NCBI GenBank assembly: GCA_023205875.1
Contig: CP060762.1
Location: 496,001 to 560,000, forward strand
Origin: Chloropicon primus
Lineage: Eukaryota; Chlorophyta; Chloropicophyceae; Chloropicales; Chloropicaceae
DNA length: 64,000 nucleotides
Reading direction: 5' to 3'
Shown in pieces: positions 606-61,667 of the stretch. Made by a program: the position numbers and the translations under genes. Each line of letters begins with the position of its first letter. The stretch's first letter is position 1. The notes beneath the pieces were generated by a model. It saw only the letters and a list, made by a program, of their open reading frames with translations. It was not told where the DNA came from and searched no databases.

Positions 606-748
606 GGTCACCAAATCCTCAAACGCGAGGCGTTTCTTTCGACCAAGAGCTCTTTCGAAAGAGGAAACCGTAACGCTTTCGACAGTTCACCTCATCTTCC
701 GAGCGAAACGCGCGCTTTCGCCGTCCTTCTCCCCCTTTCTTGTCACAA
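606..748 (+). repeat. 143-bp direct repeat, copy 1
   Basis: Near-identical to 805-945, with start-to-start spacing of 199 bp. Both copies begin with GGTCACCAAATCCTCAAAC and end with CCTTTCTTGTCACAA. They differ by scattered substitutions and a 2-bp length change. About 56 bp of unique sequence separates them. The shared palindromic element lies inside each copy. Confidence 0.9.
634..663 (+). promoter_or_regulatory. Recurring CTTTCGAAAG palindromic element, copy A
   Basis: TTTCTTTCGA, a six-base spacer, then the palindrome CTCTTTCGAAAGAG at 650-663. It is the first of five copies in the window (others at 833-862, 7537-7570, 19669-19702 and 39485-39521), all in 5' intergenic DNA. Consensus left arm TTTCTTTCGAGCGAGRG, right arm CTCTTTCGAAAGA. 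Confidence 0.6.
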
Positions 749-804
749 GAAACAATAATCCTCGAAAGTCGAAACAACTGCCTTGCAGACTTTTTCACAA
801 ACGT

Positions 805-945
805 GGTCACCAAATCCTCAAACACGAGGCGTTTCTTTCGACCAAGAGCTCTTTCGAAAGAGGAAAGTGTAACGCTTTCGACAGTTTACCTCAATCTCAG
901 CGCAACGTGCGCTTTCGTCGTCCCTCTCGCCCTTTCTTGTCACAA
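805..945 (+). repeat. 143-bp direct repeat, copy 2
   Basis: Second copy of the repeat at 606-748. Being closer to FAN1, it may serve that gene while copy 1 serves the F-box gene; that split is inference. Confidence 0.9.
833..862 (+). promoter_or_regulatory. Recurring CTTTCGAAAG palindromic element, copy B
   Basis: Identical over its core to copy A, with the palindrome at 849-862. It lies inside the second 143-bp repeat, about 360 bp upstream of the FAN1 start, in the same orientation as that gene. Confidence 0.6.
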
Positions 946-1218
946 CCTTCCTAAAGTCTGCAGCGAGCGAGAGAGTGAGTCACCTCATCGAGTTTGAAAA
1001 CATTGAAAACAGGTGGATGGAGGGAGAGGAGGTAAGTTGCCGATGACTTTAAGCCGATGGGTGGCACGTTTTTGCGCGCGATGGTTGAGGATTCGGAACC
1101 GCCTTGTCTTGATCTTTCCAACGAGGGTTCACTCGACGGGTTTGACGTCGTAACGAAGGTGCAAGAGACTGAAACGTGAGATGATGTCCTCGTTGGTGAC
1201 GCAGGAGGTGTCCACCCT

Positions 1219-3654: not shown

Positions 3655-3723
3655 CGTCACGCCACGTCGCATGTAAATCATGTATCATGTATCAGGTGTA
3701 TCAACAATCGTTGTGTCGTAAGT

Positions 3724-5538
3724 TTAGTTTACTTCTATCATGTTTTTCCCCATGTCCCAAGGCTCTGTGCTCACTTTGCCGTCTTCGTGAATCGTCAGCA
3801 GGAAGACAAAGGCATCCCCCACCTTTAGTGCCCCAGCGTCCGCCGCGGAGGGCTTGAAGAGCAGGAGCTCGGAGACGTCTTTCCATTTTGCGATGGCTTC
3901 TACGTTGACAGGACTCAGGCCTGCTAAATTTCCTGACCTGGTCATCACGACTTGATACTTGAGAGCCGCCGTGCCACGCCCCTTGATGAATTTGCTTCCC
4001 CCCTCCGCGGAAGTCTTTAGAAGTGCTGCCAGAGTACGTGCCGTGGATTTGTTTTTCCGAAGTGAGCTTCCGAGGACCTCTGATCCCTTGCTGAGCTCCA
4101 GCCCCTTCTTCTCCACCCTGGACCTGTACTTGTCCACAAAGACAGTCGTGAACGTGCCGCTCGCCACCTCGAGCTTTCGGATGTTACTTTGCACACGTTC
4201 GGATGTCCTGTTGAGCGCCACCCAGCCCAAGAGAAGGGCGGTGAGGATAGACACGGAGGCCTTTGCGGCGGCTTTCAAACTTCTCAGCCTCGCCCCGCTT
4301 TCGTAGATCTCCTGCTCGTTCAAGTCGCAACTTGCTTGCATGGAGAGGCACGGAAGGGTCTGCTCGTGCATGCCCACGAAATCCAGCATATCAAGCAGGC
4401 ACTGGAGGTCGGAAGGTTTGGCCAAGACTTGCTGCTCGCCTGTCCCGTCGCGGGAGGTGAAAACGACTTCGGCCAGGCCAGACGAGGTATCTGCCTGCCT
4501 GATTCTCACCAACGGCGGCTCGCACGTGATCCAATTCTGGGCCTTGGTCCTGCTCTTGAAGAATGCGAGAAGAACGGTTTTCATGACCCTCAAGTGATCC
4601 GTGCCGATTTCCACGGATTGATCCTCACTCGACCCTGTGTCAAGGTCAAGCACAACCCTTTCGGCATCCTCCAAGGTGATCCCAAACGCCATCCCCGTCA
4701 TCGCATTCCCGCTGAAGGCGTCGTCGTCTTCCCCCGCGTCCCCGAGCGAGAGCTCCGCCTCTGCCTCCTCGAAGTTCAAATCATGCGCCAGAGACGCCGC
4801 GACCCGCCTCCTTGCCCCTTCAGACCGGCCCCTGTCCACGGAGACCACCGTCCTCCACGCTGCCCTCCTCGCTACATAAGGCTGGTCCTTGAAAGTCCAC
4901 GAGAACTGCATGTCCTCAAACTCCTGCGGTTGCACGATGTCCTCGCTCCCCAGGGCCCAGGACAATACAGGAAGCAGCAGGCTCTCCCGCTTCGAGCCCT
5001 CCGATCCCCCAGGCGCCGCAGCGGAACCAACCCCCTCGGTTCCCGTCGTTTCCACCAAGCCAACCAGCACCCTGGCGAGCACTTGCTCGTCCACAAAACG
5101 AAACAGAGGCGCGTCACTCCTCTCCGCCTCTGCGAATATTCCTTGCACGAGCTCCGGCTCGAGGACGCCGACCTTCGATGCGTGAGCCAACACGTTCTTC
5201 AACAGGAGGTCCCTCCTTATGATCCACTCCTGGATGGCTGCAAGGCCTCCCACAACCTTGGCCGTCTCCTTGGAAACCTCGGACGAGTACACCTCCAGCT
5301 TCACGTCATCCGCCCAGAACACTCGCGCCAGCTGCACATCGCGGCCACGGCTTCCGTCATCGCGGCCACTCGACGGCTCGCTCACCTCAGAGAACGCCGA
5401 GGAGGACGCCGAGCACCAACTCCTTTGCCTTTGATGCAGCAACCTCTCTCTCTCAGGAGGCTTCGCGGTGCGACGGCCGTGGCGTTGGCGAGTGCGGCAC
5501 GAGTGCGGTGCCTTTGGAAGCCTGCTCGAGACCGTCAT
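3724..5538 (-). CDS. Unrecognised protein with one membrane segment, possibly plastid-targeted
   Basis: About 604 aa from the ATG at 5538; an in-frame upstream ATG at 5679 would give 651 aa. Seen from the 5538 start: a leader of about 50 residues rich in Arg, Ser and Gln with few acids (MTVSSRLPKAPHSCRTRQRH), which looks like an organelle transit peptide. An acidic-basic soluble region follows, then one hydrophobic helix near residues 430-447 (SVSILTALLLGWVAL), then a Lys/Arg-rich helical stretch and a compact end. I do not recognise the family and assign no function. Inference: a plastid or mitochondrial protein anchored once in a membrane. It is the only gene between FAN1 and HUS1 without a clear repair link. 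Confidence 0.75.
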   Translation of the reverse strand: MTVSSRLPKAPHSCRTRQRHGRRTAKPPERERLLHQRQRSWCSASSSAFSEVSEPSSGRDDGSRGRDVQLARVFWADDVKLEVYSSEVSKETAKVVGGLAAIQEWIIRRDLLLKNVLAHASKVGVLEPELVQGIFAEAERSDAPLFRFVDEQVLARVLVGLVETTGTEGVGSAAAPGGSEGSKRESLLLPVLSWALGSEDIVQPQEFEDMQFSWTFKDQPYVARRAAWRTVVSVDRGRSEGARRRVAASLAHDLNFEEAEAELSLGDAGEDDDAFSGNAMTGMAFGITLEDAERVVLDLDTGSSEDQSVEIGTDHLRVMKTVLLAFFKSRTKAQNWITCEPPLVRIRQADTSSGLAEVVFTSRDGTGEQQVLAKPSDLQCLLDMLDFVGMHEQTLPCLSMQASCDLNEQEIYESGARLRSLKAAAKASVSILTALLLGWVALNRTSERVQSNIRKLEVASGTFTTVFVDKYRSRVEKKGLELSKGSEVLGSSLRKNKSTARTLAALLKTSAEGGSKFIKGRGTAALKYQVVMTRSGNLAGLSPVNVEAIAKWKDVSELLLFKPSAADAGALKVGDAFVFLLTIHEDGKVSTEPWDMGKNMIEVN

Positions 5539-39613: not shown

Positions 39614-42600
39614 ATGGCGTCGGCGAGGGAGGTGGGGGCGGAGAAAGTGAACTTCGGGGAGGGGCTCTTCGCGCAAGACGCGGAGGACGTGCTCGACGCG
39701 AGTGCGCTGCCTCTGGTGCTGTCGGTGTCCGAGCAGAATCTGGAACAGCTCAGTAAGGAGAGGCTGAAAGCGAGCGTTGACTATGCCCAGCGTTTCTACG
39801 TGGAGGCTCTTGACTCTTCGCCCGTGGAGGACAAGACTTTCAAGGAGCACACGTGGTGGCCAGGGCTTTTCTTCAAAACGTGGCGGACGGAGCGCGTGTT
39901 CCTCGACGGCTTTGCCAAGAGCAGCGTGAGCTTGGTGTACACTGGGTACGCCACGATGCTCATCATCAGCATATTGATCCCGCTACAAGTCTTCCTGAAA
40001 GCTGTGTTCAAGTACAACGCGCCTTGTCCTCCGGACTTGGAGTATCTCTGCAAGTGCTTCCCCTACTACTCTGGCCGCGAAGACGTGTGCTTTGAAGGGA
40101 CCACCACCGACCTGTTCATGGAGGCGATGCGCGATTACTTGACGCGCAGCCTTCCTATCTTGGCAACGATCATGGCCCTGGGGAGTTTGAGTCACTTCTT
40201 CATTCACTGGTGGGACAGGGCCCCGAAGGCCCTCGCGATGGTCCCGACCTTTGTCGCGTACCTGGTGCTTCTGGTCTTCTCTTACATCAATGGGTTGAAG
40301 CTGCAGAAGGCAAGCGATGGACGGCTGAACAGCGAGTGGGTGAATCAGTTCTTCTCCGCCTTTCTGTTAATTCTGCCGTCCTTCCTTTTCTTCTCTGGGA
40401 GTCCCCAAGTGCTACTGTACTTTGTTCTCGTGGTGATTGGTATGGCTGAATTTGGCACGATCCTCACGGAGAGTTCTCGCACGCTCGAACAATATGGATC
40501 AACCTCAGTGTACTTCGTCAGACTGCAAGCATATTTCAACCAGACTGCGTACATGATCGCCATATTTATCTTGGTAACTCTTTGCGGGGCTCTGCTTCAG
40601 GAGCTCAAAGCTCGAAAGGTGTTTCTGCAACGCGTTCTGCTCACTGACCAGCAAGAAGAAATCATCCGATACAAAACGCAGAACACGAAGCTGCAGAAAG
40701 ACCTGCTGAACAAGGTGCTTCCCTCTACGATTGTCGAGCAGCTGGAGGAAGAAAATTTTGTCATCCAGTCTTGGTCTCAGCTGAGAAACCTGTCGCAGCA
40801 TCACTCTGGAGTCTGCATCGCGTTTGCCGAGCTCGAGGGCTTTGCGACGTTCTCTTCGCAAGTGCATCCGTCGTCCGTGCTGAATTATCTTGACGATCTG
40901 TTTCTCGTGTTTGATGGTCTGTGCGACGATCACGAGGTGTACAAGGTGGAGACTGTGGGGGACCAGTATGTGGCCGCCGTCGGTGTTGTCACGGGGAAAA
41001 TGCACAACGAGAGAGTCAGCGTGAATTCTGCAGCGCTGCCAGAAAACGAGTGCAACGGTGAGTTGAGAGACGTCTCCGTGTTCAATACAGACTTGATGAT
41101 TAGCTTCGCCAAGGCCATCATGAAGGGTTCGAGGTGCGTGGAAGCTCCCGAGGCTGACGTGAAGCCTGTGTTGCGAATCGGGATCCACACGGGCCCCTGC
41201 ATGAGCGGGATCGTGGGAACAAAGACCTTCAGGTTTTGCTTGTTCGGGGATGCGATGAACACCTCGGCCAGGATGGTTCAGATTGGCCCGGCGGAATGCA
41301 TACACACCACACAGGATGTGGTTGGCCTCGTCCCTGACGAGCCCTGGGAGAAGCTGAAGAAGATGGAGGTGAAGGGCAAGGGGGTGATGCAGACGTACTT
41401 GCTTCGTTGTGATAATGCCGCACTTGCCGATCCTGAGGATCCCGCTCATGGGTGTGATATTGCCCCAGACGACTTGGATGACTTCTTCTTCTTGCGGTCT
41501 GAAGACGACTTGCGTGTGAATGAAAGCAAAGGCGAGGGTCGTAAGGACTACCAGGACATTCAACCCGTGAGCAGGCACGAGTTTAGGATGCACACCAAGT
41601 ACCTTGGTCTCTTCTTCAAGAGCTGGAATATCGAGCGGGCGTACTTGGATGGGCAAGCACGACAGGATAAGACCGCAGTCTATTTCGGCTACGCAGCCTT
41701 CGTACTCATCATGCTTTCAAACGTTCTGTTTGGATACTGTTTCCAGCAGTTCGAAGAAAGTGTGTGTTCAGAGTCGTACGACGTTTGCGTCAGTGAATTC
41801 GGGGTGCTGGCTGTGGAGACTGGCAGCGGGGTATCTTGGGAGAGCATGCAGTCAGCATCAATACTGAATTTGAGTCCTCTGTGCGCTGGACTCGTCTTCG
41901 CTCTCCCGGTTATGGGCGTCGGGAGTCACTTTGCCATTCACAGGCTCGTGCAGGAAAAGTGGTGGGCCTCGGTCTGCTCTCTCGCAGTCTACATTCTCCT
42001 GATGCTGTTCTTGTGCCTCAACGCATTCTTCTGGGGGAAGCGCCCCCTTGACAACAAAGAATGGACTTTAAACGTTTTCTTTTCCGTTCTGGTGTGCTCC
42101 ACGCTCTTGACTTTTTTTGGTGGCGTCGCATGCCTAGGGTGCCTCACGTGGTGGCTCTGCTGCTTTCTCCTCGTGTACACCTTGGGTCCTATCACCGTTC
42201 AAAACGACATGGCGGCCGGGGCTGAGGAGAACGTCTTTGCGCCGATTGCTGCTGGGAGCAACTTTGCTGCTTCCGCCACGGCCTTGGTCATGTATGGCAT
42301 CCTCCTACTCATCGGGGCTTACCTTCGAGACATCGCGAGCCGAAGGAGGTTTTTGCAGGGCGTTATGTCTCGGCGTCAGCAGAATCAGATATTGCAAGAG
42401 AAAATTAAGGCCGAGACCATGACGAGGATTTTCCTGGAGAGTATTCTACCTCCTCGTGTTGTGGAGCAAATGAAACGAATCAAGAGATCGCTAGGACAAC
42501 CATCGTGTCTGTCCCAAAGGCATTTTGGCGTCTCAATCTTGTACGCTGACCTGGTCGGCTTCACGGAGTTTTGCAGGCGAGTCGACCCTTTCACGGTCCT

Positions 42601-43111
42601 AGTGTTTCTCAACGACTTGTTCGTCATCTTTGACCAGCTCTGCGACGACTTCAACGTGTACAAGGTCGAGACTGTGGGAGACTGTTACGTGGCAACAGTG
42701 GGCGTTGTGTCTGGGGAGTTGAATGGCAACAAACTCGATGGACCAGAGTCCCCGAATGTTCACGGTGCTGAAAACACCATTGACATGATCGGATTCGCAA
42801 AGGCCGTGGTGTGGGGATCGAGGGAGATCACGAAGCCAGTTGTCAACACCCCCGCGACGTTGCGCGTGGGCGTGCACACAGGCTCGTGCATCAGCGGAGT
42901 CATCGGGACAAAAGTGCCAAAATTCTCGATCCTGGGCGATGACGTGGCCCTGGCCGCCTTGATGGAGAAGAAGGGGAAGCCTGACCACATCCACGCCTCT
43001 GAGAGCGTCGTCGCTCTTGTTCCTAATGAGGCTTGGGAGAAGCACACACTTGTCGTCGATAGCGCCGATGGCCGAGAGCGCGTCGTCGAGACGTTTCTCT
43101 TGAGCGTGTAG
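39614..43111 (+). CDS. 12-TM class III cyclase, predicted guanylyl cyclase with split active site
   Basis: 1165 aa, one exon. Layout: about six membrane helices, catalytic domain C1 (about 395-575), six more helices, C2 (about 965-1160), as in mammalian adenylyl cyclase. C1 has guanine-type base residues E446 (KVETVGD) and C542 (RFCLFGDA) and the transition-state N549 and R553 (NTSARM), but Glu406 replaces the first metal Asp (AELEGF). C2 has both metal Asps, D979 (YADLVGF) and D1023 (VGDCY), but lacks the Asn and Arg (VALAALM). So each half supplies what the other lacks, like soluble guanylyl cyclase beta and alpha in that order. Inference: one intramolecular site making cGMP. The halves look like an old internal duplication (GLFFKTWRTERVFLDG against GLFFKSWNIERAYLDG). 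Confidence 0.93.
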   Translation: MASAREVGAEKVNFGEGLFAQDAEDVLDASALPLVLSVSEQNLEQLSKERLKASVDYAQRFYVEALDSSPVEDKTFKEHTWWPGLFFKTWRTERVFLDGFAKSSVSLVYTGYATMLIISILIPLQVFLKAVFKYNAPCPPDLEYLCKCFPYYSGREDVCFEGTTTDLFMEAMRDYLTRSLPILATIMALGSLSHFFIHWWDRAPKALAMVPTFVAYLVLLVFSYINGLKLQKASDGRLNSEWVNQFFSAFLLILPSFLFFSGSPQVLLYFVLVVIGMAEFGTILTESSRTLEQYGSTSVYFVRLQAYFNQTAYMIAIFILVTLCGALLQELKARKVFLQRVLLTDQQEEIIRYKTQNTKLQKDLLNKVLPSTIVEQLEEENFVIQSWSQLRNLSQHHSGVCIAFAELEGFATFSSQVHPSSVLNYLDDLFLVFDGLCDDHEVYKVETVGDQYVAAVGVVTGKMHNERVSVNSAALPENECNGELRDVSVFNTDLMISFAKAIMKGSRCVEAPEADVKPVLRIGIHTGPCMSGIVGTKTFRFCLFGDAMNTSARMVQIGPAECIHTTQDVVGLVPDEPWEKLKKMEVKGKGVMQTYLLRCDNAALADPEDPAHGCDIAPDDLDDFFFLRSEDDLRVNESKGEGRKDYQDIQPVSRHEFRMHTKYLGLFFKSWNIERAYLDGQARQDKTAVYFGYAAFVLIMLSNVLFGYCFQQFEESVCSESYDVCVSEFGVLAVETGSGVSWESMQSASILNLSPLCAGLVFALPVMGVGSHFAIHRLVQEKWWASVCSLAVYILLMLFLCLNAFFWGKRPLDNKEWTLNVFFSVLVCSTLLTFFGGVACLGCLTWWLCCFLLVYTLGPITVQNDMAAGAEENVFAPIAAGSNFAASATALVMYGILLLIGAYLRDIASRRRFLQGVMSRRQQNQILQEKIKAETMTRIFLESILPPRVVEQMKRIKRSLGQPSCLSQRHFGVSILYADLVGFTEFCRRVDPFTVLVFLNDLFVIFDQLCDDFNVYKVETVGDCYVATVGVVSGELNGNKLDGPESPNVHGAENTIDMIGFAKAVVWGSREITKPVVNTPATLRVGVHTGSCISGVIGTKVPKFSILGDDVALAALMEKKGKPDHIHASESVVALVPNEAWEKHTLVVDSADGRERVVETFLLSV

Positions 43112-47918: not shown

Positions 47919-50900
47919 ATGGAGACGCGTGCGAGCGGAAGGAAAGAGAAACACAGCAGCAGCAAGAAGGGCGTCGTCGTGTCTCGAGGGGACGAGAAGA
48001 AGAAGAGCAAGAAGGGGAGCACAAGCGGAGGAGGGGGAGCGGGGAAGAGGAGCAAGGCGAAGGGGAAGAAGCGAGGGAGGGAGGTGGGGATGGACAAGGG
48101 TGGGGAGGGTTCGGGTGGTCGCGCACCGGAGGCCATGGACACGGACGAGGTGGACGACGTGGGGGAGGGGAGTGCGAGGGGAGGGGCGAGCACGAGCGCT
48201 TTGAGTCACCACAGCGCCCTCCAGGGGCTCCTGAAGAAGCTAGGGGCGGGGTTGGAGGATTTGCTTCCGACGACGGGGGGCTCGGGGTCCGAAGGGCCTC
48301 ACGGTCTCTTCGGGGGTCCCGGGGGCCTGTTCGGGGGGGGGTCCTCCCTGTCGCATAGGCTGAAGCCCGTGCTGATCGGCTTGAAGAGCTTTGACGACGA
48401 GCAGAGGCAGCTTGGAGCGCTGACGGAGCTCTGCGACGTATTGACCGTGAGCTCGGAGGAAGTTTTGGTCGCCAGCTTCTCCTGCGAGGCTTTCTTGCCT
48501 CCTCTGGTGGACTTGTTGAGGTGCGAGCACAACCCGGACGTGGCCCTCTTCGCGGGGAGGGCCCTCACCACGCTGGCCGACCTCATGCCGCCCCGAATGG
48601 CTGTAGCAGGGATGCTGAGACTAGGAGCCGCGGACGCTTTTTGCGCCAAGCTCATGTGCGTGGAGTACATTGACGTGGCCGAGCAGAGCCTGCAGGCGCT
48701 GGAGAAGATAACTTCGGCGGGGGAGGAGCACGCTGGGCTGTGCATGCGCTCGGGGGGCGTGCAGGCCGTGCTCAGCTTCTTGGATTTCTTTCAGACGGGG
48801 GTGCAGAGGGTGGCGGTGAAGACGGCGGCGAACATGCTGGCGTGCGTGTCGTCCAAGCAGGACGTTGTCATGATAAAGGACGCCCTGCCCATCCTGGTCA
48901 ACCTCCTGTCGTACGGCGACGACAAGATCGTCGAGCACGCTTTCCTTGGACTCGCGAGGGCCCTCAAAGCGATTTGCTCCTGCATGGCCCGCTCCAAGCA
49001 GGGGGACGCCTTGAGAGACGAGTACACCTCCACCATTCTGTCGACCAAGATGCTTGACGAGATGTCAAAGCTGCTTCAGGTGTCAGAGTACGGCTCGATA
49101 AACTCCAGCCTGAGCACGTCCTCGTACTACGAGGCCGTCAGAAGCCTGGAAAAGTGCTGCAGCGAATCCGCCCTGCTGGCAGAGAGACTCTTGGAGCTCG
49201 ACGTCCCGGTGACTTGCATGAGACTACTCCAGACCTCAACGATGGGGTCCGCCTCGAGCACGGGGACCACCCCTATGACGTCCCCGAAGGGGGTTCCGAC
49301 GCCTTCTTCGACGGTGTCCCCCATGGTCTCCCCGAGCATAAGGTCGACTGAGAACACGATCTCCATCCTCAAGCTGGTGGACGCCATGCTTCCCGAGGTC
49401 CCGGAGAACGCGAGGGCCTTGGGGGTGGACAGCAAGCAGCTTTCTTTCAGCAGCTCCCCGGTGCCAACCATTCAGCCGGACATCGTGGAGGGGAAGGCCT
49501 GCAGAGTTTTGCTCCCCACCTTGTTCGCGATGGTGAGCTCGACCCTGGCCTACCAGATGAAGCACGTCTGCTTGTCTTGCATGAAGAAACTCCTTGTGTC
49601 CACAAGCTCTGACGGTTTGAAGGACATGCTGAGGGATCTCCCTGCTTCAAGCACTGTGGTGGGACTCCTTGCCAGCAAGGACTGCGCTGTGCGACTGGAT
49701 GCGATCTTCATGGCCAGCGTTCTGTTGGACAAGCTTCCCGACATCTTCATACGCTATTTCATGAAGGAGGGCGTGATGTTCAGCGTCAACAGGATTGTCG
49801 AAGAAGCAGAAGCCAGCGGCGTTCCGGAGTTTACTTTGGAAGACATGGTCGAGGAGGATGCTCCCACTACGAGCGGGCTAGGATTGGGCAGAGGCAGGTT
49901 GGGGCAGTCCGATGCTTTCGTCACACCAACAAGTACGTTGGAGACAAAGGTTTTGCAGGCCGCAAAAGAATTCCACTCCAAGTATGTCAAGGTGAGCGCG
50001 GAGTTCGGCATCAATTCGGAGGCCTTGCCTGAGGAGATGGAGGCCCTGCAGAAATTGGCGGGGAAAATTGAGAGCGGCGACTGTGGTGCGCTCTCAGCCT
50101 TCCTTGATCTGGTCCTCGCGGAGAACGGGGGCTTGTCGTCCTTTGAGCTCGTTCACGCGGGGTTGGAAAAGGCTTTGCTTGCCTACTTTCGTGGGGCAGA
50201 TGGCGAGGTGTGCTACGAGCGGATGAGCAAATTTGCCGAATGCTTCTCCGTCAGGGGGGACTCGGAGGACATTTTCAAGATGCTCTTGAAGCGCCTGCAT
50301 GAGATTGTGTCGTCAAGGGAGAAACTTCCCGTTCTGGCGTGCAAGTCTAGGCCTCCGCAATCATCGTCGATGAGATACCTCTTCCTCGAGCGAAGCCAGC
50401 CTTCTGATCGTTCCAACGAAGCCAATGGCTTTGCGGCTTTGGCACATCCCTTCAAGCTCCGCTTTGTGAGAGCCCAGGAGGAAAAGAAGCTTCGGGACTA
50501 TTCCTCAAACGTGGTCCTTGTGGAGCCACTCTCAACCTTCGAAGTCATCGAAGACTTTCTCAGAACGCGTGTTGAGCCTCCTCAGCGAAGCTCGGACGCC
50601 TTCAAGGCGAGGTCTCGCTCCTCTTTTGGGGATGACAAGCAGTCTTCCTCCAAGTCGAGCATTCTGACGAGGTCAAAGATGAAGCAGAAGAAGCAGGAGG
50701 AGGAGCAGCAGAAGAAGCTTTCTGACGACAAGCCAAGGAGGGTCACCCGGTCTGCAACAAAGCAGATGATGAGTGATGGGGCTGCACCCGAGGATGACGA
50801 CGATGAGGAAGAAGAAAAGTATCACAGCATGGACGAGGAGGAAATGCATGGCGGCTCTCACATGGAGGACGACCATCCGGATCTAGAAATGGAAGACGAG

Positions 50901-53105
50901 GAGGACCTTGATATGCTCGAGGATGACATGGAGGACGATATGGAGGACGATGATGACGAGTACGACAACCCCTTCCGATTCAGGAGAGACTCCGAGGTGC
51001 ACGAGGTTGACGTGGGAGAGTCTTCCAGCAAGGCAGAGGGCAGCAGATCAGACAATTATGCGGATAAGGCTGCCTCGAAGAGTTACAACTTGCAGTTCTT
51101 CCTGAATGGAAAGCTCATGAGCGCTCAGTCGAGCATTTTCCAAGCCGTGCTCCGAGCCAACGACGCCTTTGTGAATGCGGACGACCCGGAGAACAGCCAG
51201 CACGGCCCAAGCGTGTGGGAAAGGGTCCACACCTTCACTTACAAGAGGCAGGTGGCCTCCTCCGCAACTGAGCCTGATGCCAACCCTGCGAGGGGTGAGC
51301 AGAGCGGATCGCAGATTGTGAGCGTGAAAGATTTGGTTGGCAAATCGATTTCGGGGAGCAACGGAGGACTGGTCGAAGCGCTTGATAAGGACACTCTCGG
51401 GGCCTTGGACCTCATCAACATCCTCGTTTGGCTTCAAGGAAATCATTCCAGAGCATACGAGGGCAGCAGTCGGTTCTTGTTTCTCAATGGGGTTTCCCAG
51501 GAAGATCTCATTTCCCCCAGGCTCACTTCTAAGGTGTCGAGGCAGCTGCAGGACCTCCTGATTATCTGCGGCAAGTGCTTGCCCCCGTGGGTCCACAGCG
51601 TCGTGACGAACTACCCGATGGTCTTCCCATTTGACCTCAGGAGGCAGTACCTGCACCTGACTTTTCTGGGTGTCCCGCACGCTATCCAGTACCTGCTTCA
51701 GCAGATTCCCAACGGCGATAGCTTGAGGCAGGAGCTGAGGGACGTGCGCCTGGTCAGGAACAAGAGGCAGAAGGTTAGGATTTACAGGGACAAGCTCCTT
51801 GATTCTGCGTGCAAGGTTATGGAGCTGTATGGCAAGTCCCGGGCATCCCTTGAGGTGGAGTATCACGGCGAAGTCGGGACAGGTCTGGGCCCGACCCTGG
51901 AGTTTTACACACTGCTGTCCTCGGAACTCCAGAGGCGAACCCTGAACATCTGGCTGACGGCAGACAAGAAGAGCGAGCCTGCCATACCCAACAATGAGGT
52001 GGACATGGAAGTCAGTGGGCAGGAGTCCTCCGACATGGAGAGCGAGGGGTTGATCTTTGGGGAGATGGACAGCGTGTCCAACCCGGTGAGACGGCGGGAG
52101 ACCCTGCCGTCCGACAAAAGCAAAAAGGCGGACGCTAACGAATTTGTGGAGCCACTTGGAGATGGTTTGTTCCCCGTACCGAAATCAAAGGTAGGCAAGA
52201 GAGAGCTTGCCTACTTCAGGTTGCTCGGCACGGCCTTTGCGAAGGCTTTGTACGACGGCAGGCTGCTGGACATCTCTCTGTCCACGGCCTTTTGGAGGCG
52301 GGCGCTAGGGGAAGATTTGAGTATTTATGACCTGGCCTGCGTCGATGGCCAGATGAGCAAGTCCCTCACTAAGCTCTACGAGGCAGCGCACTCCGACTCG
52401 GAGCCAGGAAAGATGGACGGCGTCCCAATTGAGGACCTGGGTCTCTACTTCACTCTGCCGGGACACGACGGCTACGAGCTGTGCCCCAACGGGGCTGATC
52501 GATTGGTGACGGGGAAGAATGTCAGAGATTTTCTCGACAAAGTCCTTGACGCTTACTTCGGGAGTGGGACCGCGAAGCAGTTTTCCAAGTTCAGGGACGG
52601 CTTCGAGGAAGTTTTCCCTCTCGAGAAGCTGGCGATCTTCAAGACGGACGAAATCGACACCCTCTTCTGCGGTCAGACCGAGAAGTGGACGGTGGAGATG
52701 CTTTCGGACTGCCTCAAGTTCGACCACGGGTACACTGCGACGTCTCCTTACATCAAGCAGTTCCTTCACATTCTCGCGGACTTTGACTCGGAGGAGCAGA
52801 GGCAGTTCCTGAAATTCGTGACGGGGGCCCCAAGGCTCCCCCCCGGGGGGCTGAGCGCCTTGAACCCAAAGCTGACGATTGTGAGAAAGAACTTTTCGAG
52901 CGCCAGGGACAGCGCGGGCAACACCCCCAGGAGCGAGGGCATGCACACGCCAGTGAACGAGCTGGTGCTGGAGAACTACGACTTGCCGTCGGTCATGACT
53001 TGTGCCAACTACGTGAAGCTTCCACCGTACACCTCCCAGGCCGTCATGAGGGAGAAACTGATGTACGCCATGAAGGAGGGCCAGCACAGCTTCAACCTCA
53101 GTTGA
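47919..53105 (+). CDS. UPL3/TRIP12-type HECT E3 ubiquitin ligase
   Basis: 1728 aa, a single exon of over 5 kb. Seen: a basic Lys/Gly-rich leader (KEKHSSSKKGVVVSRGDEKK) likely to act as a nuclear signal; an armadillo-like region at about 150-650 (FDDEQRQLGALTELCDVL, ALPILVNLLSYGDDKIVEHA); a long acidic Asp/Glu-Met block near 960-1030; and a C-terminal HECT domain. The catalytic Cys is C1695 in VMTCANYVKLPPYTS, and the HECT N-lobe shows LEVEYHGEVGTGLGPTLEFY. Known: the UPL3/UPL4, UFD4 and TRIP12 group adds ubiquitin to N-degron/UFD substrates and, in plants, to transcription regulators. Length is close to Arabidopsis UPL3. Convergent with the sugar transporter, 121 bp between stops. Confidence 0.95.
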   Translation: METRASGRKEKHSSSKKGVVVSRGDEKKKSKKGSTSGGGGAGKRSKAKGKKRGREVGMDKGGEGSGGRAPEAMDTDEVDDVGEGSARGGASTSALSHHSALQGLLKKLGAGLEDLLPTTGGSGSEGPHGLFGGPGGLFGGGSSLSHRLKPVLIGLKSFDDEQRQLGALTELCDVLTVSSEEVLVASFSCEAFLPPLVDLLRCEHNPDVALFAGRALTTLADLMPPRMAVAGMLRLGAADAFCAKLMCVEYIDVAEQSLQALEKITSAGEEHAGLCMRSGGVQAVLSFLDFFQTGVQRVAVKTAANMLACVSSKQDVVMIKDALPILVNLLSYGDDKIVEHAFLGLARALKAICSCMARSKQGDALRDEYTSTILSTKMLDEMSKLLQVSEYGSINSSLSTSSYYEAVRSLEKCCSESALLAERLLELDVPVTCMRLLQTSTMGSASSTGTTPMTSPKGVPTPSSTVSPMVSPSIRSTENTISILKLVDAMLPEVPENARALGVDSKQLSFSSSPVPTIQPDIVEGKACRVLLPTLFAMVSSTLAYQMKHVCLSCMKKLLVSTSSDGLKDMLRDLPASSTVVGLLASKDCAVRLDAIFMASVLLDKLPDIFIRYFMKEGVMFSVNRIVEEAEASGVPEFTLEDMVEEDAPTTSGLGLGRGRLGQSDAFVTPTSTLETKVLQAAKEFHSKYVKVSAEFGINSEALPEEMEALQKLAGKIESGDCGALSAFLDLVLAENGGLSSFELVHAGLEKALLAYFRGADGEVCYERMSKFAECFSVRGDSEDIFKMLLKRLHEIVSSREKLPVLACKSRPPQSSSMRYLFLERSQPSDRSNEANGFAALAHPFKLRFVRAQEEKKLRDYSSNVVLVEPLSTFEVIEDFLRTRVEPPQRSSDAFKARSRSSFGDDKQSSSKSSILTRSKMKQKKQEEEQQKKLSDDKPRRVTRSATKQMMSDGAAPEDDDDEEEEKYHSMDEEEMHGGSHMEDDHPDLEMEDEEDLDMLEDDMEDDMEDDDDEYDNPFRFRRDSEVHEVDVGESSSKAEGSRSDNYADKAASKSYNLQFFLNGKLMSAQSSIFQAVLRANDAFVNADDPENSQHGPSVWERVHTFTYKRQVASSATEPDANPARGEQSGSQIVSVKDLVGKSISGSNGGLVEALDKDTLGALDLINILVWLQGNHSRAYEGSSRFLFLNGVSQEDLISPRLTSKVSRQLQDLLIICGKCLPPWVHSVVTNYPMVFPFDLRRQYLHLTFLGVPHAIQYLLQQIPNGDSLRQELRDVRLVRNKRQKVRIYRDKLLDSACKVMELYGKSRASLEVEYHGEVGTGLGPTLEFYTLLSSELQRRTLNIWLTADKKSEPAIPNNEVDMEVSGQESSDMESEGLIFGEMDSVSNPVRRRETLPSDKSKKADANEFVEPLGDGLFPVPKSKVGKRELAYFRLLGTAFAKALYDGRLLDISLSTAFWRRALGEDLSIYDLACVDGQMSKSLTKLYEAAHSDSEPGKMDGVPIEDLGLYFTLPGHDGYELCPNGADRLVTGKNVRDFLDKVLDAYFGSGTAKQFSKFRDGFEEVFPLEKLAIFKTDEIDTLFCGQTEKWTVEMLSDCLKFDHGYTATSPYIKQFLHILADFDSEEQRQFLKFVTGAPRLPPGGLSALNPKLTIVRKNFSSARDSAGNTPRSEGMHTPVNELVLENYDLPSVMTCANYVKLPPYTSQAVMREKLMYAMKEGQHSFNLS

Positions 53106-54834: not shown

Positions 54835-56274
54835 GACTCAACTCAAGAGAGTATACTGTGTGTTGGTGCTGGTTGTGCGTTTTTGAGCGTTACGCGTACT
54901 CGGTCGACGGCGGCAACAAGTGGCAAGTGGCAAGTTGCGTTACGCGAATGGAAGGGAATGGATGGTTGCCCCGAACGCGTAATCGGTCGACGGCGTCGAA
55001 CTCTGAACTGAAAATGGCTTCTCAATTGGCGGCGAACCATACCTCAACCCTCGTCCAGGATCACGGTTTTAGCAGGATCGTGACTGTAGCGGATAAGAAT
55101 TTTATCCTAATCATCACCAGATATTTTCGGCAAGAGAGAGAGAGAGAGAGAGAGGCGTCATGACGAGAACACTTGGTGCCAAGAAACGGCCGACAAAAAA
55201 GCAGACACATCGTTTCGGGATAGGGTCGGAACCTGCCTTGACGCACAAGCACGAGGGAAGACAACAAGCTCTTCATGAGGAGTTGCCGGGGGAGAAGACG
55301 TATCGACCCAAGGTGTTTTGCTACATATATGGCTATTCCTGGAAAGGCGGTGTCACCGTCAAAAGCGAGCGATGTTTGGCACAAGCATAAGGAGGCCGTC
55401 GAACAAGAAGAAGGAGGAGGAGGAGGAGGAGAGGGGGGCGAGGGGGAGGGGACGGGGGCTCTGCTGCTGCTGGTGGAGGAGGAGGAGGACGAACAGGGAG
55501 AGGAGGAGGAGGGGACGAGGGAGGGTTGTCCTCAGGTGCCATGGACATGGACGTGGACGGAGAGTCTGTGCAGAGTTTCTTGACGGGCTCCACCACCATC
55601 ATCGAAGAGGAGAGCGACAGTGAGGAGGATAGTGGTGGTGAGGATTCGTCTTTTCAGCCTGGGCCTCTCACTCTCACGCTCTCTGCTGTGTTGGATTGGG
55701 TTGTCCTAACGGTGATGTCGCGGCGAGCTTTGAGTGAGGAGGATCCACAAGCTATCCCACGATCACCCGATCCAAAGCCTTTGCCGTTATAAAGTTGGGT
55801 CGCCGGTCCCTTCGCGCTCTCGTCGTCGTCCGTCGTCCGTCGTCGTGGCACGAAAACACGCGGTTGATGATCCCACGACCTGGTCGTCGTTCGTGGCTTT
55901 GCTCTGGGATCAACCACATTCCATCCGGGATCCATCGCCGTCGTTGTCCTGTCGTGTCCCTCAGGACAGTGCCACACCCCGTGGACGTCTGGTGTGAAGT
56001 CCGTCACTCCCAAAACTCAGAGTACTCCTCCGTCCCTCTCCCTCCCCCTCGGTCAAACAGCGAGGTCTTTCCTGCAGGAGAGAGAAGTTACCCCCTCAAA
56101 GGGATCAAAGTGGTTCTCCCTTGTAATGGGACCACTTTCGTTTCTGTGGGACCACGTCTCTCGTAGAATTACGAGGAGGAAGAAAGTCGTTGATGACGAG
56201 CAGGAGAAGAGGAGGAGACATCACAAGGCAAGGTCGTCTTGGTGTGTTATCGATATCCATTACTCCTGTCCAAG
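54835..56274. promoter_or_regulatory. Long divergent region between the sugar transporter and SPAG17
   Basis: 1.44 kb, the longest gap. It holds a 27-bp imperfect repeat (54891-54917 and 54974-55001, core TCGGTCGACGGCG), two GCGTTACGCG words (54887 and 54937), a GA run (55135-55153), and GTTATAAAG at about 55788-55796, which could be a TATA-like site. It also contains an unresolved possible coding stretch (55160-55792). Confidence 0.45.
55160..55792 (+). other. Possible small gene, unresolved
   Basis: A 76-codon ORF at 55160-55390 begins MTRTLGAKKRPTKKQTHRFG and is basic and unlike repeat. In the same frame after its stop come an Arg/Gly-rich stretch and then, from an ATG at 55541, MDMDVDGESVQSFLTGSTTI and an acidic EEESDSEEDSGGED run to a stop at 55792. 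GGA triplets dominate 55410-55520. No exon join I tried gives a clean frame with good splice sites. It may be one disordered protein gene with an intron, two small ORFs, or leader DNA with chance frames. Confidence 0.25.
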
Positions 56275-59200
56275 ATGGCGGCCGAGCAGGAGGACCACGA
56301 CCTGAGCGATGGTGCGGGTGGAACTTCTTCTTCCTTGGCAGTGCCCCGGTTGGCGTACCACGCCGTCCCGGTGCTGCTCCTGAACGACGAGGGGGACTTG
56401 AGTGAATTTGATATTAGGGACAAGCTAAGGGTGTGCTTCGAGGAGAGCGAGGAGGAGAGCGACAAGGAGACGCAATTGAAGGTGCTGACGCAGGAGGACA
56501 TCGATTCCCTCGTCGTGGACGGGGAGGAGAAGGGACAGGTGGCCTTCAGCACGCTGGTGGAGCGGCAAATCGACAAGGACGTCGCTGCCCTGGAGAAGGA
56601 GCTGTGGGAGAAGGCGGAGCACGCGAGGATAGAGAGGGAGGAGGCCGAGAAGGCTGCCAAAGCGGCGGAGGAGGGTGGAGGGGACGATGGCGCCGCCAAT
56701 CCGGAGGAGGCTGCCAACACGGAGGAGGCCCAGGAGGAGGACGACGCCCAACCTGCGCCCCAGGAGCCTCCTCCGGAGGTCGTCGTGAGCAAGACTTGCC
56801 TGTACATCTGCAAGTACGCCCTGAGCGAGAGGGAGATGGAGGGAGCCTCGTCCCAGTCCCTGAGGTACCCCCTGTCCGCACTGGCTTACGTCCACGGCAA
56901 GGTGGAGGAGCCCGAGGCCGCGGAGGGGGAGGAGCCGGTGGCCAGGGAGCCGAACGAGGTGGAGAAGCTCTTCAAGCGACTGAAGGAGGTGTCGGTGACG
57001 GAGGCGCCGAACACTTGGACGCTGGACGTCGCCCTCATCGAGTGCGAGGCCGAGGAGCAGTCGAGCTACGAGTCCCTCAAGAGGGACCTTCTCAAGGTCT
57101 CGAGCTGCGTCGGGGTTCTCAAGGGCTGGCAAGACTCCACCTTGTTCCTGAACGTGCCCGACCACGAGGAAGTCAGGCTGGGTTACTACAAGCAGCTCGC
57201 CGACAGCGTGCCCCTTTCCTCGTGCTCGGTGCCCGTGCTGCTGCACTGCATGCTGGAGCAAGTGGCCCAGAACGCCGAGAGCGACGTCAAGGTGAGCCCG
57301 GAGAAGTCCCTCGCGGACAAGGCCGGGGAGCTCTTCGACTCGATCATCGGCGGGATGGAGGAGGACCCCGAGCCCGTGGAGAAGGACAAGGTCGATGTGG
57401 TCTTCGAGCTGAGCCAGACTCTCAAGGGCTCGCCCCGCAAGTCGAGGAAGAAGGCCGCCAAGTTCGCCCTCTTGGAGACCAAGGAGGTCGAGGAGCGCAT
57501 GTGCAAGCTCACGGGGATCCCGGGCACGGGAAGCTTCGGCGCTGACGGCGGAAAGGCCGCGATCTCCCAGGAGGACAGGGCCACGAGGATGACCTCGAGG
57601 GAGTACTTCTGCGAGAAGCATGCCCTGCCCCTGTCGACGCTCGAGCACCGCGAGCAGCTCTCGGAGGCGGCGGGGTGCCTTCCGGAGGCCCACAAGTCCC
57701 ACAGGGAGAACATCCTGGGTAGGAGGCACGTCGAGATCTTGGACGCCGGGAGCGCAGCCCAGAGCATCATGCACTCCTCCCGTGTTCTACCAAGTCTCAA
57801 GTCCAAGTACCTGGACTTGGAGGACGCCACCCTCCTGGTCCTGTCCGCGAGTTCCAAGGAGGACGCCAAGCCAAACCCAAGCCTCCCCCTGCCAGTGAGG
57901 CTGCAGGACGCGTACAACGGCCAGGACACCGCCGACTCGTCGTCCTGGCCCGAGTACGTGTACGACATATGCATCCCGGTAACGGACATCATGGAGAGGA
58001 ACACGCCCAAGGAGATCTATCCTTGCGAGGGGTCCCGGGTCTGCACGTATTCCGACGATGCTTGGACGCTGTGCAAGGGCATCAACACCCTGCACTACAG
58101 CGAAAAGGGCCTCCAAGGGACGACGATCGATGGAAGCTCCGTCGTGATCTCCGGCTCGGACACGCAGGTGGTCCTGGAAGAGGGAGTCGTCCTGAGCATC
58201 AACGAGGACGGCACCCTGGCCTTCACCCACGTGGAGGAGCAAGAGGAGTCTTGCTGGACAATCTTGCGCAACGGCACGGTCGTCAAGTCGGAGTTCAAGA
58301 CCGGGAAGAAGGTCGTGATGCTCCCCGACGGATGCATCGGCAAGTACGAGTCCGACACCGAGACGTGGACGAGGGTGAACTCCAAGGGGGAGCAGTGGAG
58401 CGAGAGGCCAGCGCCTCCCCAGGCTGCCAAGACGGAACCAGAGGAGGGAGCCGAGGAGGGCACCGCCGAGCCGGCAGAGGCAGAGGCAGAGGCCGCCGCC
58501 GAAGAAGAAGCGGAGGCCGAGGAAGGGGAGAAGGTCGAGGAGGAGAAGGTCGAGGAGGAGAAGGCGCCAGAGTTCGAGAGGGTCGGCCTGCCAACCTTGT
58601 CCATCGCCAGAGTAAGAGACCCGGACACGGGTGCTTACGTTCTCACCAGGGAAGATTTGACTATGATGATCCAGTACGAGGAAGGCCACAAGCTCTCCCT
58701 GTTCTCCGACGGCACCAGGATGATCACCTATTCCTCTGGGGTCTGGGAAACCATGCTCCAGCTGAAGAACATCAGTCTCCTGTTCAAGGGAGACGGGAAC
58801 CAGATCAGCATCGGGAAGCTTACGGTCGACAAGGCCGAGGAAGGGGGCATCAGCATCAAGATACCATTCGACTCCTCTGTGCTCGAGGTGGAGAAGAGCG
58901 GAGAGGACGCCATCTTTGTCAAGCTGGGTGACTTCCACGTGGACGTGGGATCGGGGTCCCTGCGCCACCAGGGCAAGGTCCTGTGGGAGAAGTCTTCCTC
59001 CCAGGCGCAGCAGGAGGAGGAAGTGAAGGCCGCTGAATCTTCTGCTGCCGCCGCAGGCGAGGAGGGAAGCGCCGCCGAGAACGAGGACGAGAATGCGGAA
59101 GCTCCCGGGGAAGAGGAAAAGGTGGAGGAAGAGGGCAAGGAGCCCGCCGAGGAGGAAGGGGGCGAGGAAAATGCGGACCAGGGAGAGGATCAGCAGGCGG

Positions 59201-61667
59201 AGGAAGAAGAGGAGCAACCTGTGCTGGACACTGCGGCAAGGTTCAAGCCGAGGGTGTTCAAGGTGTACAGCAGCGGCGAGGCCGTGGAGTTCATCGACGA
59301 GGAATCTTTCCAGGGCATCAAAGAGAAAGCGGAATCTCGAGGCGATCAGCACATCTCGGAGGCCGACATTCACAACAGCGAAACGAGCACGGTTCCTGTC
59401 AGCCACACGTTTCTCTCTGAGAGTGATGTGAGTGGCAGCAAAGGGATTGTTGTTGCTCACAACATTGCGGGAGAGAGCCAGGCTCCACGAGCTTTGCAGA
59501 CTCTCACGGTGCCTTCTGCGATTACTTTTGCGTACGTCGGGAACCACAGCGTTCCGCTGCCTATGATATCAGCAATTCCTTCTGACGCGGACACTTGCCT
59601 TGGCCACTCAAAGGTCCTCCTGGTGAGGCAAGTCCAGGAGTTCCCAAAGATCGAGGACAAGGAGATCGCCTCGGTGGAGGAGGTCTTGAAGGACCTGAGC
59701 GAATTTGATCTGGTCAACGAGGAGACTTCTCCGAGCACCTACATAGTCCCAGAGAGCCAGCACGGAAGCAACGCTGCAGACATAAAGAAGCAGATCAGCG
59801 CAACGTCCGAAAAGATCAAGAGGCTCAGATTGGCCAAGGCAAACGACTCGAGAAGTGAACCCGAGGAAAGCGATGGCAAGGCACCAAGCGGGAAGGAGGG
59901 GAGGGCGTCCTTACTAAAAGAGGTAATGTAAAATTACGTTTTCCTCTTTTGAGGTGCTGATAAAAAGAAGAAGAAAAATGATTATATTGATTATTGTATT
60001 GGCTGCGAACTGACACACGTTCTTCTGCTCGTCTTGCTTGCCTCGCTGTGATAAATCACAACACACAGGACTCCAACGCCGGCATCAGGGAAAGGCCCAA
60101 GCAAGGCGTGCTGCTTCCCTACTTTGGGTCCGAGGAGGCCGAGGAGATTACTGCGGAGGAGCTGGAGAGGAAGAAGAATGCCCCTCACGAGTCCGCTGCA
60201 GGGGTTGAGAAGTACCTCACGACCGAGGTCACTTACGATAATATCCAGAAGCTGGACAGCACCTTGGATGCGTGCTTCAAGCATTCTTACGACGACTTGA
60301 GGGTCTTTGCTTGCGCGCTCGGCATGGCTGAAGATGAAATGCCAGAGTCTCAGAAGGAGAAGGAGAAGGAGTGGACGGATGCCGTCAGAGTTGCCAAGGG
60401 CATCTGCGAGGGCGGATCCTCCTACGAGAAGAAGTACGAGTCCTTCGCCGGAGAGTCGGTCCAGACCCAGATAAGGAGGCACTTTCTCTCGAACATGGGC
60501 GTGGGGTTGGACATCCTCGAGCTGTGCTTGAAGTCTCTGAAGGCTCAGAGGTATCTCGAGCTGTTCGCCGACATTGAGAGCACGTCCAGAGTCGACACGG
60601 CCTTGGAGGCCTTGTTCGAAATCCTGAACTATGACTTCCCGTACTTGAGCGACCTCCTGGTGCAGTTCAAGACCGCACTCCCGGCAGACAACGAGGAGGT
60701 GATCCAGGCTGCTGAGAGGGCGAGCAAGACTTGCTCTTCGGTGTCCCCTAGAGACGGAATCGAGAACATCTTCAAGCACCTTCGCTCGGATGTCCTTCTC
60801 GCTGGGGCTGCAGGTGCAGCTATGCTGGATGACCTTCTTGACTGCCTGAACCTCGAGAAGAAGAAGAAGGACTTCATGAAGCTTTTCGTTCAAGTGGACA
60901 GCGATGACGACGGGTACCTGACCAACGAGGAATTCAAGTCCCTGATCCCAAAATTGAACACCATGCTCCTGTCCACGGACGCCATCGAGGAGTCGGAAGT
61001 CAGCGAAACCTTTGATGGAAACATCTCCATCTCGGATTGCATCGACTTCTTGTTCCAGAAGCAGACTCAGAATTCGCCCCTGTTCCCCAGCGAGCTTCAC
61101 AGCGAGGAGACAAACTTCACGATGTACTCAAAATCGGTCGGCGAGAACGAATTCTCCAGCTTCAAGGACATCGCCCACGTGTACGACACAACGAGGGTTT
61201 CGTCGAACAAGGTAGCCCCGTGCGTGATGAACGCCGAGTACCTTTCCATCGAGGGAGAGACCCGAAGGACGTTGAAGACGGGCCTTTGCTCGATGCAGAA
61301 GATGAAACTCCAGGAGGGAATGGCGGTGAAGAACTTCCAGATGACCCCGGCCTACCTGTTCCTGGGAAGGCTTGAGCCAGGAGCCTCGGCCAAGGGGAGG
61401 CTGACTTTGCAGAACGTTGGTCCCGAGGCCGCGAGGTTCAACGTTGGCAACGTGGACGCCCCGTTCGAGCTGCACTACACACCTGGATTACTCGCCGCCG
61501 GGATGAAGCGGTTCATCGACATCGAGGTGAAGATCCCAGAGCAAGCGGACCCTGAGCAAGGCGACTGCTACTGCACGGAGGTGGTCATCAAAACCGAGTG
61601 CAACATCTTGTACTGCGTAGTTGCTGCGAAGGGCCTCGACAGGAGCAAACTCAACCCAATAACATGA
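56275..61667 (+). CDS. SPAG17: SPAG17/PF6 central-pair apparatus protein (2 exons)
   Basis: Join of 56275-59922 and 60069-61667, 1748 aa. The 146-bp intron has GTAATG and ACACACAG, phase 0, and joins LLKE to DSNAGIRERP. Seen: long Glu/Ala-rich low-complexity segments (about residues 120-165, 720-770, 920-990), a DEFKSL-type EF-hand (VDSDDDGYLTNEEFKSL) in exon 2, and a C-terminal ASH-like domain whose wording (RLTLQNVGPEAARFNV, HYTPGLLAAGMKR) closely fits the end of human SPAG17. Segments like PWPEYVYDICIP and ILRNGTVVKSEF fit its middle. Known: PF6/SPAG17 builds the C1a projection of the flagellar central pair and is needed for motility. It is shorter than PF6 or human SPAG17 (about 2200-2300 aa). 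Confidence 0.9.

What the first reader, a model, noticed from the sequence alone, without database searches (positions are those of the whole stretch)
39614..43111. Single-chain guanylyl cyclase with complementary half-sites in inverted order
C1 keeps the base-selecting Glu446 and Cys542 and the transition-state Asn549 and Arg553 but has Glu406 at the first metal position. C2 keeps both metal Asps (979, 1023) but has Ala1112 and Leu1116 where Asn and Arg should be. This is the soluble guanylyl cyclase beta/alpha division of labour in one 12-TM chain, and it is the reverse of mammalian adenylyl cyclase, where C1 gives the metals. Inverted order is known from ciliate and apicomplexan guanylyl cyclases that are fused to a P4-ATPase; here there is no such fusion.
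Basis: partly seen in the sequence, partly recalled or inferred. Interest (0 to 1): 0.75.

Follow-up and report, generated by a model that had tools for sequence, protein, structure and literature searches.

The report
Algal membrane cyclase with swapped half-sites
A tiny marine green alga encodes a membrane enzyme, predicted to make the messenger cGMP, whose single active site is shared between two halves in the reverse of the animal order, and its close relatives carry the same parts unfused, self-pairing or in the opposite order, with catalytic parts copied between genes while the membrane parts diverge.

Summary
ORF 39614-43111 is an intact 1165-aa, 12-TM protein of Chloropicon primus with two PF00211 domains. 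C1 carries Glu446, Cys542, Asn549, Arg553 and Lys587 but Glu406 at metal position 1 (Asp450 at position 2 is kept). C2 carries Asp979 and Asp1023 but Ala1112 and Leu1116. One complete, GTP-type site is predicted; an AlphaFold model pairs C1 and C2 like mammalian AC9.

Inverted 12-TM guanylyl cyclases without a P4-ATPase are not new: Dictyostelium GCA lacks it, and dinoflagellate-type proteins found here share the order. The new part is the family. The same genome holds a 6-TM relative with a complete site (P0194) and a paralog of opposite order (P0017). P0017's membrane halves match two separate, unfused environmental 6-TM proteins, one metal-only. So the divided site was apparently fused at least twice, in opposite orders.

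Catalytic cassettes also move between genes. A 497-bp stretch of C1 is identical to two of three copies in a contig 7 array (one mismatch in the third) whose membrane regions are about 35% identical, and P0017's second cyclase domain has a breakpoint and groups with the window's C1. Activity and substrate remain untested.

The parts
39614..43111 (+). 12-TM pseudo-heterodimeric nucleotide cyclase, 1165 aa, single open frame
39881..40624 (+). first six-helix membrane block (about residues 90-337), ending in a long helix toward the catalytic domain
40775..41413 (+). C1 catalytic domain (residues 388-600): E406, E446, D450, C542, N549, R553, K587
40786..41282 (+). 497-bp tract identical, synonymous sites included, to two of the three contig 7 array genes (one mismatch in the third); gene-conversion tract
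41624..42343 (+). second six-helix membrane block (about residues 671-910)
42503..43108 (+). C2 catalytic domain (residues 964-1165): D979, D1023, E1019, S1105, A1112, L1116; Lys motif absent
42509..43110 (+). C2 stretch 91.7% identical in DNA to the contig 7 array genes, 97-99% over codons 1061-1165; second, less complete conversion tract

Best explanation
The gene encodes a membrane guanylyl cyclase of the green alga Chloropicon primus. The chain folds into two six-helix membrane blocks, each followed by a helical stalk and a class III cyclase domain; C1 and C2 pair head to tail. One site is complete: C2 binds the two metal ions (D979, D1023), while C1 reads guanine (E446, C542) and stabilises the transition state and phosphates (N549, R553, K587). 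The mirror site is dead because C2 lacks Asn, Arg and the Lys motif. The membrane blocks most likely sense an unknown ligand or membrane state and set the geometry of the pair, as proposed for bacterial and animal membrane cyclases. In origin, a 6-TM homodimeric guanylyl cyclase, of which P0194 looks like a living representative, was duplicated and its copies split the site between them. The halves were fused as Asn/Arg-half then metal-half in the window family, and apparently separately as metal-half then Asn/Arg-half in P0017. Gene conversion keeps catalytic cassettes alike while the membrane blocks diverge. Shown by sequence: residues, order, paralogs, identical tract. Inferred: activity, GTP use, pairing in the cell, sensing, order of events.
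Against: No activity, expression or ligand data. E406 is a conservative change and D450 is kept, so C1 might still bind a metal ion. The tree of whole halves is poorly resolved: it put both P0017 halves weakly with P0194 (50/80), and AU did not reject all first halves as one clade (p 0.066), nor grouping by half-site type (p 0.29 to 0.56). AU groups were named after the trees were seen. The bootstrap had not settled. The membrane-sensor idea rests on analogy.
Confidence: 0.8

Rival explanations
1. The inverted order is inherited from the same ancestor as the dinoflagellate, ciliate/apicomplexan or Dictyostelium 12-TM cyclases, and the P4-ATPase was lost or never gained; no separate fusion occurred in this alga's lineage.
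For: The same order is found in many dinoflagellate-type proteins retrieved here and, from the literature, in Toxoplasma (PMC6592433, passage).
Against: In the domain tree the two halves of the algal family and P0194 group with each other (100/99), not half by half with the dinoflagellate-type domains, five of whose first and five of whose second domains form clades of 100/100 each (the sixth such protein used, P0063, falls elsewhere). The two algal membrane blocks are still alignable to each other (P0001 TM1 to TM2, 26.7% over 344 residues). Ciliate, apicomplexan and Dictyostelium sequences were not in the tree.
Confidence: 0.1
2. It makes cAMP, or both nucleotides, rather than cGMP.
For: Class III signatures do not always predict substrate; the overall topology is that of adenylyl cyclases.
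Against: The Glu/Cys pair is in the half that reads the base; the animal adenylyl cyclases in the same table have Lys/Asp there.
Confidence: 0.12
3. The window gene is a recent mosaic with little function, or the identical tract is an assembly artefact.
For: A perfect 497-bp match between contigs could arise from a mis-assembled repeat; an environmental protein, P0004, also looks like a mosaic (d1 with P0001/P0002, d2 identical to P0006 over the kept columns).
Against: The frame is open over 1165 codons. The published assembly drew on 73x PacBio and 370x Illumina (PMC6731263, passages). The window gene and the three array copies share the tract (0, 0 and 1 mismatch) with diverged flanks. The residues of the composite site are all kept.
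Confidence: 0.07
4. P0017 is a permuted copy of the window family (tail of one tandem copy joined to the head of the next) and not an independent fusion.
For: Its second cyclase domain groups with the window family's C1 (87/86) and shares the unusual Glu; the contig 7 array shows that tandem copies occur.
Against: Its membrane blocks do not: AU rejects block 1 with the window family's second blocks (p 2e-6) and block 2 with its first blocks (p 1.6e-4). The linker resembles the N-terminus of free-standing P0027/P0026 (by eye). A breakpoint lies at residues 929-936, 0 of 2000 permutations.
Confidence: 0.15

Closest known systems
Dictyostelium discoideum guanylyl cyclase A (DdGCA)
   Same: 12 TM, two cyclase domains, no ATPase region (PMC1435932, PMC11988041 and PMC6592433, passages); transposed domain order and GTP use (recalled, Roelofs et al. 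2001, not held)
   Different: Sequence kinship was not tested; the algal halves group with their own 6-TM relatives, so a separate origin is likely
Alveolate P4-ATPase guanylyl cyclases (Toxoplasma, Plasmodium, Paramecium)
   Same: In Toxoplasma GC1 gives nucleotide and transition-state residues and GC2 the two Asps (PMC6592433, passage)
   Different: No P-type ATPase domain in the algal gene
Mammalian membrane adenylyl cyclases (ADCY1-9)
   Same: 12-TM topology, long helical stalks, C1-C2 pair; model matches AC9
   Different: Metals come from C1 in ADCY and from C2 here; base pair Lys/Asp against Glu/Cys
Mycobacterial Rv1625c/Cya, 6-TM homodimer taken as progenitor of animal membrane cyclases
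   Same: Layout like the algal P0194: one six-helix block and one cyclase domain (PMC9552081 and PMC9433096, passages)
   Different: Bacterial adenylyl cyclase; the algal counterpart sits in the same genome as its presumed fused relatives
Trichomonas transmembrane cyclases (TMAC)
   Same: Large family of membrane cyclases with evidence of gene conversion (PMC2914791, passages)
   Different: Single cyclase domain, one strongly supported conversion or crossover reported there, about 46% pseudogenes; here the tract covers a half-site cassette inside two-domain proteins

Membership tests
Class III nucleotide cyclases (PF00211) | Cyclase homology domain over the curated cut-off | tested here: met
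   Two stretches, 257.5 bits against cut-off 21.9
12-TM pseudo-heterodimeric cyclases | Two six-helix blocks, each followed by a cyclase domain | tested here: met
   Hydropathy and AlphaFold model
12-TM pseudo-heterodimeric cyclases | Exactly one complete set of catalytic residues shared between the domains | tested here: met
   by alignment only, site geometry not measured
Guanylyl cyclases | Glu and Cys at the base-reading positions | tested here: met
   E446 and C542; the meaning of the pair is established knowledge, recalled
Guanylyl cyclases | GTP turnover | not testable with these tools
   No assay
Alveolate P4-ATPase guanylyl cyclases | N-terminal P4-ATPase domain | tested here: not met
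   Pfam shows PF00211 only; in-frame stop upstream of the ATG
Dictyostelium GCA type | 12 TM, transposed order, no ATPase | tested here: met
   the transposed order of GCA itself is recalled
Dictyostelium GCA type | Common descent of the fused halves | not tested
   GCA was not among the sequences used
Soluble guanylyl cyclase | H-NOX/HNOBA regulatory domains | tested here: not met
   Only PF00211 found
Mammalian-type adenylyl cyclase | Metal Asps in C1, Asn/Arg in C2 | tested here: not met
   Reverse order

The most novel reading that the evidence does not exclude
In this algal family the order of the half-sites is an accident of gene fusion: a homodimeric 6-TM guanylyl cyclase, unfused specialised halves, and fusions in both orders coexist among close relatives, and gene conversion moves catalytic half-cassettes between different membrane sensors, even from the first position of one fusion to the second position of an opposite-order fusion. 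A cell thus keeps one shared catalytic engine behind a diversifying set of membrane sensors.
Probability: 0.55. Interest if true: 0.68.

Novelty: new variant of a known kind. Interest (0 to 1): 0.57.

Why it matters
How a homodimeric 6-TM cyclase became a fused pseudo-heterodimer with one site is usually inferred over a very long span, from bacterial Rv1625c to animals. Here candidate stages sit in one algal family: a complete-site 6-TM form and fusions in both orders in one genome, and separate metal-only halves in environmental relatives. That makes the steps testable by expression, and asks whether order matters at all. Catalytic tracts identical in DNA behind membrane blocks about 35% identical point to the membrane blocks as the diversifying, perhaps sensing, part, which bears on the open question of what the membrane domains of cyclases do.

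Tried and rejected
Homology by position (P0017 first half = window first half): AU on whole halves gave first halves p 0.066, first halves plus P0194 p 0.017, second halves p 0.0496; it was disfavoured more clearly when membrane and catalytic parts were treated apart. The whole-half tree was too poorly resolved to use by itself.

P0194 as a second clear case of cassette conversion: mixed. Its membrane block sits with P0195/P0017/P0027 and relatives (96/89) and its cyclase domain with the Asn/Arg-type domains of the window family (93/95). AU gives 0.025 and 0.062 for two versions of the cyclase grouping and 0.033 for the membrane grouping; six breakpoint tests gave 0, 1, 1, 17, 34 and 193 of 2000 permutations, with breaks at different places. 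I leave it open.

Positive selection on the membrane blocks: not shown. Among the three contig 7 copies pN/pS in the membrane blocks is 0.72 to 0.93. Synonymous differences are fewer in catalytic than in membrane parts: P0002/P0003 1 of about 331 against 8.5 of about 318 sites, P0002/third copy 1 against 10, P0003/third copy 0 against 3.8; Fisher p 0.019 and 0.005 for the first two with rounded counts, the third was not tested. The three pairs are not independent.

Older conversion between the window gene and other paralogs by synonymous runs: P0006 supported (7 of 2000 permutations), P0010 not (181 of 2000), P0017 not (948 of 2000). P0017's case rests on protein trees and the breakpoint only.

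Whether P0028- and P0027-type genes lie side by side in environmental contigs: not tested, because metagenome scans are capped at 0.
Full report
What is there. The window lies in a 17.58-Mb, 20-contig genome. The nearest named proteins are from Chloropicon primus; 20 chromosomes and an average G+C of 57.5% in the published genome fit (PMC6731263 and PMC12301720, passages read; window composition). The ORF 39614-43111 encodes 1165 residues on the + strand in one open frame, with a stop 7 codons upstream in frame. Pfam finds PF00211 in two stretches and nothing else. The upstream neighbour is a 2OG-Fe(II) oxygenase-like ORF on the same strand and the downstream neighbour an FAD oxidoreductase-like ORF on the other strand.

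The half-sites. I built a profile from 165 cyclase domains of retrieved proteins and read six positions from each domain (metal 1, metal 2, base 1, base 2, Asn, Arg). The Lys motif VKGKG (K587) is in C1 only. Animal adenylyl cyclases in the same table read D D K D x x first and S S K D N R second (P0113 departs: DDRDIH, STKDNT). Thus C2 supplies the metals and C1 the rest, with Glu/Cys as the guanine-reading pair. Which residues do what in solved cyclases, the sGC subunits included, is established knowledge that I recall and did not re-derive.

How common is the order? Three protein searches (each scored only the 7994 candidates sharing most words, listing 120 of 292 hits) left 241 proteins with at least one cyclase match; 77 have two matches over 60 bits. 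Of these 77, 60 have the Asn/Arg domain first and Asp-Asp in the second; in 8 of the 60 the Asn/Arg positions of the second domain, and in 2 the metal positions of the first, were not covered. 14 have the opposite order: P0017 and 13 proteins of adenylyl cyclase pattern. One (P0113) fits neither by my rule and two (P0117, P0136) are single domains matched in two pieces. The 60 include the algal family and a large group reading mostly x E E R N R / D D E H x x; the five of that group that carry an organism name are dinoflagellates (Effrenium, Durusdinium, Prorocentrum). Their Pfam labels show no P-type ATPase, but proteins much longer than the query could not be returned. So an inverted order without an ATPase is not rare. 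It is also known from Dictyostelium: PMC6592433 says a two-GC-domain protein lacking the ATPase region exists there (passage), and PMC1435932 and PMC11988041 describe GCA as 12-TM (passages). That its domains are transposed is recalled.

The family around it. In C. primus I count eight two-domain genes of this family: the window gene, three in a tandem array on contig 7, two on contig 15, one on contig 5 (P0006) and one on contig 12 (P0017). P0194 on contig 9 (L027) is a 619-aa, 6-TM protein with one domain and the complete set D D E C N R. Environmental P0195 and P0027 carry the same set in one domain. P0028, P0029, P0030 and P0032 are 719-728 aa, one-domain proteins reading D D E C T K, that is metal-only halves; they end in a stretch matching the end of a cyclase domain. 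In a tree of 59 cyclase domains (26 chosen proteins and 8 chosen genomic frames, catalytic columns masked), both halves of the algal family and P0194 form one clade with 100/99 support, apart from the animal, dinoflagellate-type and other algal cyclases included (the bootstrap had not fully settled). The split of the site therefore most likely arose within this lineage.

Opposite order in the same family. P0017 reads D D M C S S first and E D E C N R second. In separate trees of membrane blocks and cyclase domains (20 chosen proteins, 31 rows each), its first block and first cyclase domain group with the metal-only P0028/P0030 (100/100 and 100/99) and its second block with free-standing P0027/P0026 (100/100). 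Its linker resembles the N-terminus of P0027/P0026 (read by eye, not tested). So P0017 looks like a separate fusion, metal half first. Its second cyclase domain, however, groups with the window gene's C1 (87/86); AU rejects grouping it with P0026/P0027 (p 0.018), and rejects its second membrane block with the window family's first blocks (p 1.6e-4). A maximum-chi-square scan puts a break at residues 929-936, just before the domain: 104 of 124 informative sites on the left match P0027 and 58 of 77 on the right match the window gene, 0 of 2000 permutations as extreme. The natural reading is that a window-type C1 cassette replaced the original one. Against this: the groups were named after the first trees were seen, synonymous runs between P0017 and the window gene are not significant (948 of 2000), and an earlier tree of whole halves was unresolved and weakly placed both P0017 halves with P0194.

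Gene conversion in the window gene itself. Against the contig 7 gene P0002, codons 398-537 are identical in DNA, while the 35-codon blocks of the membrane regions share 11-57% of their residues and the two membrane blocks 36 and 35% overall. The exact tract is 497 bp, 40786-41282, with a further 86 bp at 41297-41382; within it two of the three array copies have no mismatch and the third has one. The C2 region is 91.7% identical over 602 bp, 97-99% over codons 1061-1165. The longest run of identical synonymous codons is 195 (residues 382-589), reached in 0 of 2000 permutations. Against P0006 there is a weaker signal (7 of 2000), against P0010 none (181 of 2000). Within the array, synonymous differences between P0002 and P0003 are 1 in the catalytic parts and 8.5 in the membrane blocks (Fisher p 0.019 with rounded counts). 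pN/pS in the membrane blocks is 0.72-0.93 over the three pairs of copies, so relaxed constraint cannot be told from diversifying selection. Direction of copying was not determined.

Mechanism. I take the protein to be a membrane guanylyl cyclase with one site, set by the membrane blocks through the stalks. Shown: residues, order, topology in sequence and model, family and tracts. Inferred: activity, GTP, sensing, direction and order of fusions and conversions. That membrane blocks act as receptors is a proposal in the literature (PMC9433096, passages). The genome has 7 matches to class I phosphodiesterases and 97 to cNMP-binding domains, some of these below the cut-off, so possible breakers and readers of cyclic nucleotides are present.

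What is in print. The genome papers report a large guanylyl cyclase family in C. primus (30 members) and isolate-specific expansions in C. roscoffensis (passages). Ten paper searches listed no title on half-site order or gene conversion in these algae; several listings were capped (for example 10 of 9,416), the library holds only open-licence papers, and I read passages, not whole papers or supplements.

Verdict. As a single protein it is a new member of a known inverted 12-TM type. The family, with both orders, unfused and complete-site 6-TM relatives, and catalytic cassettes moving between genes, is a new variant and worth testing.

Noticed in passing
L009 (G000:C11:689000-696500), frame 675-5438 +: A 1588-aa two-cyclase protein with an N-terminal cNMP-binding domain, reading QEERNR then DDNEEK. 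In the domain tree its second domain groups with animal ADCY C1 (97/93) and its first near ADCY C2 and CpC18 d2 (89/83), long branches throughout: possibly an inverted relative of the animal adenylyl cyclase line that may be fed back on by its product.
   Followed up: partly
L010 (G000:C18:52500-62000), minus strand: A 1998-aa frame with a cyclase domain near each end in the animal order (DDEHAH then SDEHNR), a cNMP-binding match between them and, by eye only, a metallo-hydrolase-like stretch..
   Followed up: no
P0188, Chloropicon primus, 1279 aa: An animal-like receptor guanylyl cyclase layout in a green alga: ANF_receptor, protein kinase and cyclase domains, all far over Pfam cut-offs.
   Followed up: no
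P0018 and P0026 (environmental): Their Asn/Arg-bearing domains changed metal position 2 (Glu or Asn for Asp) and kept position 1, unlike the window family, which changed position 1: the mirror site may have decayed by different routes.
   Followed up: no
P0004 (environmental, contig of 3739 bases): A mosaic: first half close to P0001/P0002, second half identical to P0006 over the kept columns. Either natural recombination through the shared cassette or a metagenome assembly chimera.
   Followed up: no
L013 (G000:C7:813500-822500): Two neighbouring cyclase matches reading DDECNR, the second split over two frame pieces; the first falls outside the window family in the domain tree.
   Followed up: no
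window 47919-53105 +: A 1728-aa TRIP12-like HECT ubiquitin ligase frame.
   Followed up: no
window 56239-59931 +: A 1230-aa open frame with no Pfam match, in a stretch of strong AT skew (0.204 at 56001-60000) and 60% G+C; may be a gene without known domains or a chance frame.
   Followed up: no
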